Assembly: GCF_026738875.1 (NCBI RefSeq)
Contig: NZ_JAPQFJ010000019.1
Coordinates: 1-62,245 of the forward strand
From: Clostridium brassicae
GTDB lineage: Bacteria > Bacillota > Clostridia > Clostridiales > Clostridiaceae
DNA length: 62,245 nucleotides
Reading direction: 5' to 3'
Part shown: positions 27,907-38,873 of the stretch, in pieces
Position numbering within the stretch: position 1 is the stretch's first letter
Layout: every line of letters begins with the position of its first letter
Notes under the pieces: model-generated
What the model was told of the DNA's origin: nothing
Seen by the model: only the letters and a program-made list of their open reading frames with translations
The model's database searches: none
Program-made: the position numbers and the translations under genes

Positions 27907-27922
27907 TGGCATGGGTCTTGCT
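27907..27922 (+). promoter_or_regulatory. Sigma-54 (-24/-12) promoter, PTS/amino-sugar operon
   Basis: TGGCATGGGTCTTGCT fits the sigma-54 consensus TGGCAC-N5-TTGCW with one change and exact GG-to-GC spacing. It lies 38 bases before the EIIB start. Confidence 0.88.
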
Positions 27923-27959
27923 ATATATAATAATGTGATAAATCTTAGGAGGTGACAAA

Positions 27960-28265
27960 ATGAAAGTATTAATGGTATGTTCGGGAGGAATGTCCAGTGC
28001 TATTGTGGTTAAGGCAATAAAGAATGAAGCAGATAAGAAAGATTTCCCATTAGAGATCAAAGCTGTAGGAACTTCTGAATTTGAAGACGAAGTTAAAAAA
28101 GACTATGATTTGGTATTAATAGCACCACAGATAAGACATAGACTTGAAGTATTTAGAACTCAAGCAAAAAAATTAAATGTACCAATTGAATTAATAGTTC
28201 CTATGGGATACACTCCAGTAGGTGCACCAAAAGTTTTAGAGCAAATTAAAAAGTTTCAAAGATAA
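27960..28265 (+). CDS. PTS EIIB component, lactose/cellobiose family
   Basis: 101 aa, ATG after AGGAGGTGAC. Phospho-Cys in VCSGGMSSA (Cys-8), followed by the typical GTSEFED and LIAPQIRH segments. Receives phosphate from EIIA and passes it to the sugar. First gene behind the sigma-54 promoter. The next 295 bases, before EIIC, are occupied by transposase debris. Confidence 0.93.
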   Translation: MKVLMVCSGGMSSAIVVKAIKNEADKKDFPLEIKAVGTSEFEDEVKKDYDLVLIAPQIRHRLEVFRTQAKKLNVPIELIVPMGYTPVGAPKVLEQIKKFQR

Positions 28266-28500
28266 CAAGTGATACAAGGCCAGTGGGAATAACAGGCTCG
28301 ATGCCATGAATAGTGGACAGAGTATGATTAAAAGCTTTTAGGTGATGTTCAATTTCTTCATCGAGCTTAGTAAGTTATTTTTCTAAAAACGGATATTGTT
28401 AATATTCATTGATAAAGCTAAGCTGACAGAATCATCAAGTACAGGATTAAATCTATAAGCTCTACAATTAGATTTTTAAGATTATCAGTAATGGCTGAAG
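28266..28500 (-). pseudogene. Degenerate IS110-type transposase fragment
   Basis: Read on the minus strand, the segment contains KLDEEIEHHLKAFNHTLSTI then HGIEPVIPTGLVSLV, which corresponds to the C-terminal transposase domain of IS110/IS116/IS902 elements (pattern EIE..L-x-LTTIPGIGPVTA). An upstream piece, AYRFNPVLDDSVSLALSMN, is interrupted by a stop and frame changes. No start, no ends and no catalytic N-terminal half remain. It separates EIIB from EIIC inside the operon. Confidence 0.6.
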
Positions 28501-28559
28501 GAGCTTTTAATAAGTTAGTACCTATATTTACAAGTCATATTATACAAGGGGGTAAAAAA

Positions 28560-35728: not shown

Positions 35729-36869
35729 AAAGTACGCAGTAGGTCTTATGTCAGGTACTTCACTAGATGGCATAGATGCAGCTCTTGTGAGTATAGAAGG
35801 TTGTGGAATAGATACAAAAGTTCAGCTTATAGAATTTATAAATGAGGAGATACCACAAAAACTAAAAGAAAAAATCTATTGTTGCTGCAGTACCTCAAAA
35901 TCAAATGTAGAAAAAATTTGCAGCCTTAATTTTGAATTAGGATATGTATTTTCTAATGCGGTTAAAAATGTATGCAATAAGGCAAATTTTGATTTGAATA
36001 AACTTGATTTTATAGGTTCTCATGGACAAACTATATATCACATTCCAAGGCGTAATAAGAATTTTTTTAGATCAACACTTCAGATAGGAGAACCTTCTGT
36101 TGTAGCTTTTGAAACAAATACCACTGTAGTGTCAAATTTTAGAACAATGGATATGGCAGCAGGTGGAGAAGGTGCTCCTTTAGTACCTTACACTGAGTAT
36201 ATACTATATAGGTGTAAAAAAAACAGAGCCCTTCAAAATATAGGGGGAATAGGTAATGTAACCGTAATTCCTGCTATGTGTAATTTAGACGATATTTATG
36301 CTTTTGATACTGGCCCCGGAAACATGATAATAGACGAGGTAACAAAAAGACTTAAAGGGTGTCCTTATGATATGAATGGAGCTTTTGCAGCTTTAGGTAA
36401 AGTTGATGAAAATATTCTAAAGGAACTTATGAATATAGATTATATAAAAATGGAACCTCCCAAAACTACTGGAAGAGAACTTTTTGGAAGTCAGTTTGTA
36501 GATAAGCTTCTAAATAAATTTAACCGTATTTCCTCAGAAGATATAATAGCTACCGTAACAATGTTTACTGCTAAATCTATAAGTGAAAATTATAGAAGAT
36601 TTATATTTACTAAAAATAAGATAGATGAGGTAATAATAGGTGGTGGAGGCAGCTACAATAAGACTCTTATAGGGATGCTTGAAAAACTCATGCCAGAATG
36701 TAGAATTTTAACAGGTGAAGATATAGGCATGTCTTCAGATGCAAAAGAAGCGGTGGCTTTTGCTGTTCTAGCTAATGAAACTATGAATGGGAATTGTAGC
36801 AATGTAATGAGGGCTACTGGGGCGAAAAAGAGAGTTATTCTTGGCAATATAACAACAGTAAAGAGGTGA
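35715..36869 (+). CDS. anmK: Anhydro-N-acetylmuramic acid kinase
   Basis: 384 aa from the ATG at 35715, inside the end of the kinase gene (ribosome site TGGGGA); the 21 codons ahead of it are out of place for the family. GLMSGTSLDGIDA at the N terminus, GSHGQTIYH, TGPGNMIIDE with the catalytic Asp, and GGGGSYNKTLI are the AnmK motifs. Converts 1,6-anhydro-MurNAc with ATP and water to MurNAc-6-phosphate, the substrate of MurQ. Confidence 0.95.
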   Translation: MNQSKKYAVGLMSGTSLDGIDAALVSIEGCGIDTKVQLIEFINEEIPQKLKEKIYCCCSTSKSNVEKICSLNFELGYVFSNAVKNVCNKANFDLNKLDFIGSHGQTIYHIPRRNKNFFRSTLQIGEPSVVAFETNTTVVSNFRTMDMAAGGEGAPLVPYTEYILYRCKKNRALQNIGGIGNVTVIPAMCNLDDIYAFDTGPGNMIIDEVTKRLKGCPYDMNGAFAALGKVDENILKELMNIDYIKMEPPKTTGRELFGSQFVDKLLNKFNRISSEDIIATVTMFTAKSISENYRRFIFTKNKIDEVIIGGGGSYNKTLIGMLEKLMPECRILTGEDIGMSSDAKEAVAFAVLANETMNGNCSNVMRATGAKKRVILGNITTVKR

Positions 36870-36876
36870 TTTATAT

Positions 36877-37959
36877 ATGAAAAGGTTAGGAATTGCTGTT
36901 TATCCAGGCCATGCTTCTATGGAAGAGAACATAAAGTATATAGAACTTGCGGCTAAATATGGATTTACAAGGATATTTACATGCCTGCTTTCTGTAGAGG
37001 GTAATAAAGAAAAAATATTAAGTGAGTTTAAGGAAACTCTAAGAGTTGCTAAAAATAAGAATATGCAGGTAGTTGCAGATGTAAGTCCAAAAGTTTTTAA
37101 TGAAATAGGAATAAGTTATAGTGATTTATCTTTTTTTAAGAAAATGGGGGCATATGGTATAAGACTAGATATGGGCTTTACAGGAAATGAAGAGTCAATT
37201 ATGACATACAACAATGAAGATTTATTTATAGAATTAAATATTAGCAATGGTACAAAATACATAGAAAATATAATGAGTTATAAACCTAATGTGGACAAAT
37301 TAATGGGTTGTCATAATTTTTACCCCCATAGGTATACGGGTTTAAATTATAAGCATTTTATAAAATGTTCTAAACAATTTAAAAACTTAGGCATAAGAAC
37401 TGCAGCGTTTATAAATTCCAAGGCCGCAACTTTTGGACCATGGCCTTTAAATGAGGGACTATGCACTCTTGAAATGCATAGAGAAATGGATATAGAATCT
37501 CAAGCTAAGCACTTATTTGTAACAGGGCTTATAGATGATGTTATAATTGCTAATGCCTTTGCTTCAGAGGAAGAACTTAAAGCATTAAGTAAAATGGATA
37601 AAGATATGCTTGCCTTTAAGGTAGAACTTATTAATAATATACCAGAGATTGAAAAAAATATTGTATTAAATGAACCTCATTTTAACAGAGGTGATGTTTC
37701 AGACTATGTTATACGTTCCACTCAAAGCAGAGTTAAATATAAAGAACATGAATTTCTACCATTTAATACTCCTGATATTAAAAGAGGGGATATAATAATA
37801 GATACGTCATTGTATGGACATTATGCAGGTGAGCTTCAAATAGCCCTTAAAGATATGAAAAACTCTGGAAGAACAAATATAGTTGGAAAGATTTTAGAAA
37901 AAGACCTTTTTTTACTTGATTATGTGGAACCGTGGCAAAAATTTAAATTTACAAAGTAA
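36877..37959 (+). CDS. mupG: MupG-type 6-phospho-N-acetylmuramidase (DUF871)
   Basis: 360 aa, ATG 7 bases after anmK, AGAGGTG upstream. DUF871 architecture: TIM-barrel (about 1-245; GIAVYPGHASMEEN, RLDMGFTG, GCHNFYPHRYTGLN) and a cyclophilin-like C-terminal domain (GDIIIDTSLYGHYAGELQIA). The S. aureus member, MupG, splits MurNAc-6-P-GlcNAc made by a PTS, giving MurNAc-6-P and GlcNAc. Its position between anmK and murQ supports the same reaction here. Confidence 0.88.
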   Translation: MKRLGIAVYPGHASMEENIKYIELAAKYGFTRIFTCLLSVEGNKEKILSEFKETLRVAKNKNMQVVADVSPKVFNEIGISYSDLSFFKKMGAYGIRLDMGFTGNEESIMTYNNEDLFIELNISNGTKYIENIMSYKPNVDKLMGCHNFYPHRYTGLNYKHFIKCSKQFKNLGIRTAAFINSKAATFGPWPLNEGLCTLEMHREMDIESQAKHLFVTGLIDDVIIANAFASEEELKALSKMDKDMLAFKVELINNIPEIEKNIVLNEPHFNRGDVSDYVIRSTQSRVKYKEHEFLPFNTPDIKRGDIIIDTSLYGHYAGELQIALKDMKNSGRTNIVGKILEKDLFLLDYVEPWQKFKFTK

Positions 37960-37973
37960 TAGGAGATATGAAA

Positions 37974-38873
37974 ATGAATACTGGGGAGCTATCAAAACTT
38001 GCAACAGAACAGATAAACAAAGATACTACAAATATTGATAGTGTAAGTACACTTGAAATGATAGAAATGATAAATAAAGAAGACAAAAAAGTAGCTGAGG
38101 CTGTAGAAAAAGAAAAAGAGAACATAGCAAAGGCAGTAGATGCTATAGCTGAAAGGTTAAGAAGAGGTGGAAGACTTATATATGTAGGAGCTGGAACAAG
38201 TGGAAGAATAGGAATATTAGATGCTTCCGAATGTCCTCCTACATATGGGGTTAGTGATGAGCTTGTGCAGGGAATAATAGCAGGAGGAAACACAGCTATT
38301 TTTAAAGCAGTTGAAGGAGCTGAGGATAATAAGGAGCTTGGAGCTAAAGAAATCTCCAAAAAGAATCTAAGCAATTTGGATGTAGTTTGTGGCATTGCTG
38401 CATCAGGTAGGACTCCTTATGTTATAGGAGCTATGGAATATGGTAAGAAAGTAGGAGCTAGAGTGTTAAGTGTTACCATGAGTCCAAATAGTGAAATGGC
38501 AAACATTGCCCATATACCTATAACAGTTTTAGTGGGACCAGAGGCAGTCACTGGTTCTACAAGAATGAAATGTGGTACAGCACAAAAAATGGTGCTTAAT
38601 ATGCTTTCTACTGGAACTATGATAAAATTAGGAAAAGTGTATAATAATTTAATGGTTGATGTACAAACTTCTAATGAAAAGCTTGTGGCAAGAGCTAAAA
38701 GGATACTTAAATTAACTACAGATGCGGATGATATAACTATTGACAAAGTGTTGAGGGCTACAAATAATGATGTGAAATTAAGCATAGTAGTTATAAAGAC
38801 AGATTTAGAAATCAATAAAGCAAAAGAACTTCTTCACAAAAATTGTGGATATGTAAAGAAATGCATTGTTTAA
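37974..38873 (+). CDS. murQ: N-acetylmuramic acid 6-phosphate etherase
   Basis: 299 aa from the second ATG (37974), which has the better 8-base spacing to AGGAG; the ATG at 37968 is too close. SIS domain with YVGAGTSGRIGILDASECPPTYG (the catalytic Glu lies here) and TGSTRMKCGTAQKMVLN. Removes lactate from MurNAc-6-P to give GlcNAc-6-P. Last gene of the operon, followed by a strong terminator. nagA/nagB, needed for the next steps, are not in the window. Confidence 0.95.
   Translation: MNTGELSKLATEQINKDTTNIDSVSTLEMIEMINKEDKKVAEAVEKEKENIAKAVDAIAERLRRGGRLIYVGAGTSGRIGILDASECPPTYGVSDELVQGIIAGGNTAIFKAVEGAEDNKELGAKEISKKNLSNLDVVCGIAASGRTPYVIGAMEYGKKVGARVLSVTMSPNSEMANIAHIPITVLVGPEAVTGSTRMKCGTAQKMVLNMLSTGTMIKLGKVYNNLMVDVQTSNEKLVARAKRILKLTTDADDITIDKVLRATNNDVKLSIVVIKTDLEINKAKELLHKNCGYVKKCIV

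What the first reader, a model, noticed from the sequence alone, without database searches (positions are those of the whole stretch)
27907..38873. Lac-family PTS wired to a complete MurNAc salvage set
EIIB, EIIC, EIIA, GH4, LevR-type activator, MurK/NagK-like kinase, AnmK, MupG (DUF871) and MurQ lie in one direction with short gaps. MupG needs MurNAc-6-P-GlcNAc, which in S. aureus is made by a Glc-family PTS (MurP). No MurP is here; the only PTS is of the lactose/cellobiose family. The inference is that this PTS imports MurNAc-GlcNAc (and perhaps chitobiose), GH4 and MupG split the phosphorylated disaccharides, the kinase captures the free GlcNAc, AnmK brings in anhydro-MurNAc and MurQ merges both into GlcNAc-6-P. 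A Lac-type PTS in this role would be new to me.
Basis: partly seen in the sequence, partly recalled or inferred. Interest (0 to 1): 0.75.

Follow-up and report, generated by a model that had tools for sequence, protein, structure and literature searches.

The report
Lactose-type transporter for wall-sugar salvage
A clostridial operon joins a lactose-type sugar uptake system to the enzymes that recycle bacterial wall sugars, and comparison with relatives suggests it takes up wall disaccharides by a route that differs from the known staphylococcal one.

Summary
In detail: ten same-strand genes (27960-38873) encode a Lac-family PTS, GH4, a LevR-type activator, a MurK-like kinase, AnmK, a GH170 ("MupG") protein and MurQ, behind a sigma-54 box and a perfect inverted repeat. 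Profile searches find no MurP, AmpG or NagZ in the genome. The link is not local: of 70 GH170 genes whose nearest EIIC is in the window's EIIC clade, 53 have AnmK or MurQ within 9 kb, against 3 of 63 with other Lac-type EIICs.

The GH170 is 27% identical to S. aureus MupG. GH170s next to MurP form their own clade and signature (17 of 17), which S. aureus MupG shares; the 70 carry another, shared with a PTS class that looks chitobiose-like. AnmK goes with this Lac-type PTS (48 of 70), not with MurP (1 of 17). AnhydroMurNAc lacks a free C6 hydroxyl and stands behind GlcNAc. So I favour import of GlcNAc-(anhydro)MurNAc, GH170 releasing GlcNAc-6-P, kinases and MurQ finishing (0.45), over MurNAc-GlcNAc (0.25) and chitobiose (0.2). 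No specificity was measured. Eight literature searches showed no such PTS. New variant of a known kind.

The parts
27560..27745 (+). 6S RNA (RF00013), the upstream neighbour and boundary of the operon, not part of it
   Evidence: 60.5 bits, gathering score 46.4
27831..27876 (+). Perfect 18-base inverted repeat (TCATTTTTAGTGTATCAA, 10 bases, TTGATACACTAAAAATGA): likely upstream activating sequence for the LevR-type protein
   Evidence: present unchanged in genome G006 (L099), whose sequence just upstream differs (by eye). Binding is inferred
27907..27922 (+). Sigma-54 -24/-12 box TGGCATGGGTCTTGCT, 37 bases before EIIB
   Evidence: only exact match in the window, 0.22 expected, at least one in 21 of 100 shuffles; a relaxed box lies within 400 bases upstream of a PTS or GH4 gene in 38 of 43 W/C2 rows with a LevR-type gene in the locus and 4 of 64 without
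27960..28265 (+). EIIB, lactose/cellobiose family
   Evidence: PF02302 47.9 bits
28560..29852 (+). EIIC, lactose/cellobiose family; member of the W clade
   Evidence: TIGR00410 400 bits; trees; only PDB match 3qnq
29960..31279 (+). GH4 6-phospho-beta-glycosidase with CNVP and GLNH motifs
   Evidence: meaning of the motifs recalled
31302..31604 (+). EIIA, lactose/cellobiose family
   Evidence: PF02255 117.8 bits
31628..31921 (+). 97-residue membrane-like protein (called X97 here), no known family
   Evidence: no Pfam or NCBIfam match at E 0.001, nothing near a cut-off at E 5; related sequences in 20 of 70 W rows
31932..34598 (+). LevR/CelR-type sigma-54 activator with PRDs; GTYTGA in place of GAFTGA
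34814..35728 (+). BadF/NagK-like kinase, relative of the solved MurNAc/GlcNAc kinase 8zo3
   Evidence: same GGWGHxxGDEGS motif
35712..36869 (+). AnmK, anhydro-MurNAc kinase
   Evidence: NF007142 607 bits, cut-off 435
36877..37959 (+). GH170 protein of the Lac-linked type (C36, H151, W189, N226)
37968..38873 (+). MurQ, MurNAc-6-phosphate etherase
   Evidence: TIGR00274 391 bits, cut-off 302

Best explanation
The operon salvages peptidoglycan disaccharides. The Lac-family PTS takes up disaccharides whose outer (non-reducing) sugar is GlcNAc, namely GlcNAc-anhydroMurNAc and GlcNAc-MurNAc, and phosphorylates that GlcNAc at C6. The GH170 enzyme, here a 6-phospho-N-acetylglucosaminidase rather than a 6-phospho-N-acetylmuramidase, releases GlcNAc-6-P and free anhydroMurNAc or MurNAc. 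AnmK turns anhydroMurNAc, and the MurK-like kinase turns MurNAc, into MurNAc-6-P; MurQ makes GlcNAc-6-P of it, which the nag operon (gntR-murQ-nagA-nagB on contig 8) consumes. GH4 widens the range to other 6-phospho-beta-glycosides. A LevR-type activator and sigma-54 switch the operon on when EIIB is drained of phosphate by its sugar. Shown: genes, families, promoter-like sites, clade linkage, absence of MurP, AmpG and NagZ by profile search. Inferred: all substrates, the direction of every step and the regulation. The wider claim, that this PTS clade imports some muramic-acid-containing sugar, I hold at about 0.7; the form given here at 0.45.
For: EIIC clade W (70 EIICs, FastTree support 0.996; SH-aLRT 87). 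Of 70 GH170 genes (69 loci) whose nearest EIIC is in W, 53 have AnmK or MurQ within 9 kb; of 63 with another Lac-type EIIC, 3. With EIICs collapsed at 75% identity and a majority rule, 17 of 20 clusters against 1 of 35. AnmK: 48 of 70 W rows, 1 of 17 MurP-adjacent GH170s, and that one (L064) has a W-type EIIC nearby. Of the 48 AnmK-bearing W rows 30 have no GH4 and 28 neither GH4 nor GH1 within 9 kb; L020, L024 and L103 leave no room for another gene between GH170 and AnmK. GH170s beside MurP form one clade with S36, R/K151, no W189 and D226 (17 of 17); W189 and N226 occur in 70 of 70 W, 37 of 37 C2 and 25 of 26 other Lac-linked rows. W and C2 GH170s intermix in the tree and hardly differ. Four GH170s not used to choose the positions obey the split. 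Own genome: no MurP, AmpG or GH3/NagZ match. AnhydroMurNAc ends glycan chains (PMC8612929, passage) behind GlcNAc (PMC5061867, passage); that it lacks a free C6 hydroxyl is established chemistry.
Against: No biochemical test of any protein here. 17 of 70 W rows have neither AnmK nor MurQ within 9 kb; these include 5 of the 6 nearest relatives of the window's EIIC (L017, L107, L139, L145, L157), only the near-identical G006 sharing the full set. The functional analogues (L. paracasei ChbE, Borreliella BB_B07) are known by mutant growth or gene context only; which GH170 group ChbE belongs to could not be checked, and BB_B07 is described in print as an integrin-binding surface protein (PMC5073149, passages). 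A GH73 glucosaminidase gene, whose product would be MurNAc-GlcNAc, lies upstream at 25518-26426. The signature positions were chosen after seeing the groups; only four sequences were held out, and two of these loci are mixed: the P. megaterium plasmid also has a Glc-family PTS about 3 kb away, and the L. curvatus EIIC lies about 4 kb from GH170 on the other strand.
Confidence: 0.45

Rival explanations
1. One reading: the Lac-type PTS stands in for MurP, imports MurNAc-GlcNAc as MurNAc-6-P-GlcNAc, GH170 splits it as S. aureus MupG does, MurQ takes MurNAc-6-P and the kinase takes GlcNAc.
For: MurQ in 39 of 70 W rows; no MurP found in this genome; GH73 gene upstream; GH170 is the family of MupG.
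Against: GH170 lies outside the MurP-linked clade, whose residues S. aureus MupG shares; AnmK linkage unexplained; W- and MurP-type systems co-occur (13 of 32 W genomes, odds ratio 5.6, the MurP set picked by eye from capped lists and so a lower bound); GH4 removes a hydride at C3 and so cannot act on a MurNAc glycon (established GH4 mechanism, recalled).
Confidence: 0.25
2. The PTS is an ordinary chitobiose (or mixed beta-glucoside) transporter, GH170 and GH4 are phospho-chitobiase and phospho-beta-glucosidase, and the Mur genes merely ride in the operon to handle wall sugars that enter otherwise.
For: L. paracasei chbC and chbE are both needed for diacetylchitobiose growth (PMC12791066, abstract and passages); Borreliella chbC-chbA-chbB-BB_B07 order and co-regulation; W-clade neighbours without Mur genes; the only PDB match of the EIIC is 3qnq, the B. 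cereus chitobiose transporter ChbC (recalled).
Against: 3qnq falls outside the W clade; AnmK/MurQ follow this EIIC clade and not the others; the genome's other GH170-linked PTS (contig 9, class C2, kinase but no murQ or anmK beside it) is the better chitobiose candidate.
Confidence: 0.2
3. A broad system: one PTS takes chitobiose, GlcNAc-MurNAc and MurNAc-GlcNAc alike, with GH4 and GH170 dividing GlcNAc-6-P and MurNAc-6-P glycosides.
For: The window has both glycosidases and both kinases; GH4 lies within 9 kb in 27 of 70 W rows.
Against: 43 of 70 W rows have no GH4 within 9 kb; GH170 signature uniform in W and C2.
Confidence: 0.1

Closest known systems
S. aureus mupG-murQ-murP-murR (PMC6262408)
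   Same: PTS-coupled entry of a wall disaccharide, GH170 hydrolase, MurQ
   Different: MurP is a Glc-family EIIBC; its GH170 is of another clade and signature; no AnmK or kinase among the four genes
L. paracasei chbRCDE/chbBA (PMC12791066)
   Same: Cellobiose-type PTS with a GH170, shown by mutants to serve diacetylchitobiose
   Different: Has a DUF3284 protein, ChbD; the cluster as described holds no MurQ, AnmK or kinase; nag genes elsewhere
Gram-negative AmpG-NagZ-AnmK-MurQ anhydro-muropeptide recycling
   Same: AnmK and MurQ finish the same job; the proposed cargo GlcNAc-anhydroMurNAc is the same sugar part
   Different: Transporter and glucosaminidase would be a PTS and a phosphoglycosidase; no AmpG or GH3 match in this genome
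B. thuringiensis cel operon with CelR (PMC10864463, passages)
   Same: Lac-type PTS, 6-phospho-beta-glucosidase, sigma-54 promoter, LevR-type activator with PRDs
   Different: Cellobiose; its fifth gene is YdjC-like; no GH170 or Mur genes named in the passages seen

Membership tests
MupG (S. aureus-type 6-phospho-N-acetylmuramidase) | GH170 family (PF19200/PF05913) | tested here: met
   332 and 142 bits, cut-offs 24 and 24.4
MupG (S. aureus-type 6-phospho-N-acetylmuramidase) | membership of the MurP-adjacent GH170 clade | tested here: not met
   all 17 MurP-adjacent GH170s lie in a clade of 19 (support 1.00) without the window protein; S. aureus MupG groups with some of them (clade of 6, support 0.996)
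MupG (S. aureus-type 6-phospho-N-acetylmuramidase) | residues S36, R/K151, no W189, D226 of MurP-linked members | tested here: not met
   window C36, H151, W189, N226; S. aureus S, R, gap, D
MupG (S. aureus-type 6-phospho-N-acetylmuramidase) | hydrolysis of MurNAc-6-P-GlcNAc | not testable with these tools
   needs an enzyme assay
MurP | Glc-family EIIBC of the MurNAc type in the genome | tested here: not met
   three Glc-family EIIBs: TreP beside treC and a GntR-type regulator, a NagE-like protein and PtsG; best NF007152 match 112.7 bits against 339 for S. aureus MurP
Lactose/cellobiose PTS | EIIA, EIIB and EIIC of PF02255, PF02302, TIGR00410 | tested here: met
Chitobiose PTS (ChbC) | same EIIC clade as B. 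cereus ChbC (3qnq) | tested here: not met
   3qnq outside the W clade; one reference only
L. paracasei chb cluster | DUF3284 protein ChbD in the cluster | tested here: not met
   none of the ten operon proteins matches DUF3284 in Pfam at E 0.001
AnmK | equivalog model above cut-off | tested here: met
   NF007142 607 against 435
MurQ | equivalog model above cut-off | tested here: met
   TIGR00274 391 against 302
MurK (MurNAc/GlcNAc kinase) | phosphorylates MurNAc as well as GlcNAc | not testable with these tools
   best solved relative is 8zo3, a MurNAc/GlcNAc kinase, 99 bits; below the NagK equivalog cut-off
AmpG-NagZ recycling route | AmpG permease and GH3 NagZ in the genome | tested here: not met
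   no match to TIGR00901 or PF00933 at E 0.001
LevR/CelR sigma-54 regulon | -24/-12 box, activator with sigma-54 domain and PRDs, sigma-54 in the genome | tested here: met
   activator binding untested

The most novel reading that the evidence does not exclude
A clade of lactose-family PTS found in Clostridium and relatives, Rossellomorea and other bacilli, and Enterococcus, Vagococcus and Carnobacterium is a Gram-positive counterpart of AmpG plus NagZ: it imports GlcNAc-anhydroMurNAc (and GlcNAc-MurNAc) by phosphorylating the GlcNAc, and a new GH170 specificity, a 6-phospho-N-acetylglucosaminidase, splits it for AnmK/MurK and MurQ. It would run beside, not instead of, MurP-MupG, so that the two PTS routes recover the two disaccharides that muramidases or lytic transglycosylases on one side and glucosaminidases on the other leave behind.
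Probability: 0.42. Interest if true: 0.75.

Novelty: new variant of a known kind. Interest (0 to 1): 0.6.

Why it matters
To my knowledge (recalled) no transporter or glucosaminidase has been assigned to feed AnmK in Gram-positive bacteria; this ties AnmK to one PTS clade in 47 of the loci examined and makes the question directly testable. It also splits the GH170 family, whose Pfam models bear the name of the one characterised enzyme (6-phospho-N-acetylmuramidase), into two groups with different residues and PTS partners, so that this name may mislead for the larger group.

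Tried and rejected
Considered and dropped: (a) GH4 as the splitter of MurNAc-6-P-GlcNAc: its mechanism oxidises C3, which the lactyl ether blocks (recalled). (b) The second GH170 as partner of a hidden MurP: it lies in a tandem of two Lac-type PTSs on contig 9. (c) The curated cut-off of the MurP model as proof of absence: S. aureus MurP itself scores 339 against 516, so I used relative scores and neighbours. (d) A first definition of the W clade on a tree with EIIC1 added gave a 51-member group of support 0.23 and a table of 40 of 51 against 16 of 82. 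I went back to the 70-member clade of the tree, which a second method recovers. That choice favours the contrast; the poor definition still gives p about 2e-11. (e) Position 106 as a signature residue: S. aureus MupG has E like the Lac-linked group, so I dropped it. (f) The EIIB-EIIC gap as an IS110 remnant: the peptide looks like one to me, but Pfam gave no such match. (g) Structure prediction and fold search were not used. Sampling limits: the 80 named loci are the best 80 of 324 found; the Clostridiaceae set is 99 regions that hold the 100 GH170 matches of 300 bits or more outside the window's genome (206 genomes), plus 21 regions with lower-scoring ones, a part of those listed, and that list was itself cut. 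Distinct GH170s after removing repeats: 178, namely 70 W, 37 C2, 26 other Lac-type, 17 MurP-adjacent and 28 without an EIIC within 9 kb; the last two groups are outside the 53/70 and 3/63 counts. The window's own row was 'no EIIC' at the 8 kb limit of an earlier table, one reason for using 9 kb; at 4, 6 and 12 kb the counts are 43, 50 and 54 of 70 against 1, 3 and 3 of 63.

Full report
WHAT IS THERE. The window holds ten genes on the + strand from 27960 to 38873: EIIB, EIIC, GH4, EIIA, a 97-residue membrane-like protein, a LevR-type activator, a BadF/NagK-like kinase, AnmK, a GH170 protein and MurQ. Pfam and NCBIfam confirm all but the small protein, which has no significant match; GH170 is confirmed by Pfam only. 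AnmK and MurQ pass their equivalog cut-offs. Gaps are short except 294, 107 and 215 bases at three places. Upstream lies a 6S RNA at 27560-27745, then a perfect 18-base inverted repeat at 27831-27876, then the only exact sigma-54 box of the window at 27907-27922, 37 bases before EIIB (0.22 expected, 21 of 100 shuffles have one, so the box alone proves little). Both are unchanged in genome G006. Sigma-54 is encoded in the genome. Over W- and C2-type rows (defined below) a relaxed box precedes a PTS or GH4 gene in 38 of 43 with a LevR-type gene in the locus and in 4 of 64 without. In B. thuringiensis the same regulator type (CelR) is proposed to be switched on when its EIIB loses phosphate to the sugar (PMC10864463, passages); I infer the same here.

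THE REST OF THE GENOME. The assembly (4.10 Mb, 71 contigs, rated 100% complete) has three Glc-family EIIBs: TreP beside treC and a GntR-type regulator, a NagE-like EIICB and PtsG. The best match to the MurP model is 112.7 bits; S. aureus MurP scores 339. So no MurP was found. Nor is there a match to AmpG, GH3/NagZ or the chitobiose deacetylase ChbG. A second murQ lies in gntR-murQ-nagA-nagB on contig 8. A second GH170 lies on contig 9 in a tandem of two Lac-type PTSs: LevR-EIIC-EIIB-EIIA-GH4, then LevR-EIIB-EIIC-EIIA-kinase-GH170, with no murQ or anmK. The window's EIIC is 45% identical to the first of these EIICs and 36% to the second.

COMPARISON ACROSS GENOMES. I used 80 named loci (best 80 of 324), 99 regions with the GH170 matches of 300 bits or more from 206 Clostridiaceae genomes and 21 regions with lower-scoring GH170s, called genes with profiles made from proteins of the window's genome and one MurP-linked pair, and removed repeated GH170s: 178 remained. 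The tree of 140 Lac-type EIICs (138 near a GH170, two others) has a clade of 70, here W, that holds the window's EIIC (support 0.996; SH-aLRT 87 by IQ-TREE), and a clade of 40, here C2, that holds the contig 9 EIIC next to GH170. 3qnq, which I recall as B. cereus ChbC, falls outside W. AnmK or MurQ lies within 9 kb of GH170 in 53 of 70 rows with a W EIIC (69 loci), 2 of 37 with a C2 EIIC (both with a MurP about 7 kb away) and 1 of 26 with another; Fisher p about 2e-18 on rows, which are not independent. Collapsed at 75% EIIC identity, 17 of 20 W clusters against 1 of 35 others. The result is stable between 4 and 12 kb (43 to 54 of 70 against 1 to 3 of 63). 28 GH170s had no EIIC within 9 kb. 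Against the reading: 17 of 70 W rows have neither gene nearby, among them five of the six EIICs nearest to the window's.

GH170 IS NOT ONE THING. The 17 GH170s next to a MurP-like EIIBC lie in one clade of 19 with two others (support 1.00); 15 of 17 have MurQ nearby and one has AnmK, that one (L064) having a W-type EIIC nearby. They carry S36, R or K151, no W189 and D226 in the window's numbering; 70 of 70 W, 37 of 37 C2, 25 of 26 other and 27 of 28 EIIC-less GH170s carry W189 and N226. By my reading of the sequence these positions follow barrel strands (after FT, HNFYP and VIIA) and so may line the active site; no structure was computed. Positions were picked from these same groups, but four further sequences agree: S. 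aureus MupG and an L. paracasei plasmid protein, both beside a Glc-family EIIBC, are of the MurP type; P. megaterium and L. curvatus plasmid proteins are of the other. The P. megaterium gene adjoins Lac-type PTS genes but has a Glc-family PTS some 3 kb off; the L. curvatus gene is some 4 kb from a Lac-type EIIC with murQ between. S. aureus MupG is 27% identical to the window's protein. W- and C2-partnered enzymes intermix and, at the thresholds used, differ at five positions. Hence the enzyme probably does the same chemistry with both PTS classes.

WHICH CHEMISTRY. In L. paracasei a cellobiose-type PTS (chbC) and a GH170 (chbE) are both needed for growth on diacetylchitobiose (PMC12791066, abstract and passages). 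In Borreliella a GH170 about 50% identical to the window's, annotated as the integrin-binding protein that a review calls BBB07 (PMC5073149, passages), follows chbC-chbA-chbB by accession number and rises with them in a badR mutant (PMC6117026, passages); chbC imports chitobiose (PMC2700276 and PMC8612929, passages). C2 rows carry the kinase (21 of 37), sometimes nagA (4) or nagB (6), and no AnmK. This points to GlcNAc-6-P as the sugar that Lac-linked GH170s release. W rows add the enzymes needed if the other sugar is MurNAc or anhydroMurNAc: MurK-like kinase (56 of 70), AnmK (48 of 70), MurQ (39 of 70). AnmK is the telling one. AnhydroMurNAc has no free C6 hydroxyl, so a PTS cannot phosphorylate it there; in glycan chains it stands at the end (PMC8612929, passage), behind GlcNAc (PMC5061867, passage). 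A PTS operon with AnmK therefore most simply imports GlcNAc-anhydroMurNAc. Of 48 AnmK-bearing W rows 28 have neither GH4 nor GH1 within 9 kb, which leaves GH170, of the glycosidases I had profiles for, to split it. S. aureus-type MurNAc-GlcNAc import would need no AnmK, and MurP-linked loci lack it. Finally, W-type and MurP-type systems share genomes more often than expected (13 genomes have both, of 32 with W and at least 32 with a MurP-adjacent GH170 among 206; odds ratio 5.6; the MurP set was picked by eye from the coordinates, whose lists were cut), as complementary routes would.

LITERATURE. Eight searches aimed at this question (the lists of 64, 89 and 90 were cut at 25 of 37, 20 of 23 and 15 of 1,682) gave no paper, as far as listings and the passages I read show, that describes a Lac-family PTS for muramic-acid sugars or a PTS for GlcNAc-anhydroMurNAc; most listed papers I did not open, and most subscription journals are missing. 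PMC6262408 (passages) warns that more distant GH170s may have other functions. A reconstruction of sigma-54 regulons in 57 Clostridiales species has no 'muram' or 'DUF871' in its main text.

VERDICT. The operon is real and of a widespread type. Status: new variant of a known kind, with a direct enzymatic test available.

Noticed in passing
31628-31921: A 97-residue membrane-like protein of no known family, conserved (NRW...FFE motif); 21 sequences were aligned, 20 of them in W-type loci from Clostridium to Enterococcus and Carnobacterium; a likely accessory protein of this PTS.
   Followed up: partly
27560-27745: 6S RNA gene directly upstream of the sigma-54 operon (RF00013, 60.5 bits).
   Followed up: no
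25518-26426 and 26694-27422: GH73 glucosaminidase-domain protein and a GT51 transglycosylase-domain protein upstream of the 6S RNA; the former could make MurNAc-GlcNAc.
   Followed up: partly
28266-28559: 294 bases without an ORF of 80 residues or more of its own between EIIB and EIIC, kept in genome G006; a minus-strand peptide resembles an IS110 transposase tail to my eye but matches no such Pfam family.
   Followed up: partly
Borreliella plasmid records (one search hits): The protein annotated 'alpha3-beta1 integrin-binding protein' is a GH170 about 50% identical to the window's, by accession order after chbCAB and co-regulated; it may be a phospho-chitobiase. Its published surface role was not examined here.
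   Followed up: partly
L057, L059, L078, L093, L179: Kinase-GH170 gene pairs with no PTS gene called in the stretch held (about 10 kb each side), in several Clostridium genomes.
   Followed up: no
L009 5575-9993 and L006 13-9078: Two Lac-type PTS units in tandem, each with its own LevR-type activator, one with GH4 and one with kinase and GH170.
   Followed up: partly
31932-34598: The LevR-type activator has GTYTGA where sigma-54 activators usually have GAFTGA; the two contig 9 paralogues have GAYTGA.
   Followed up: no
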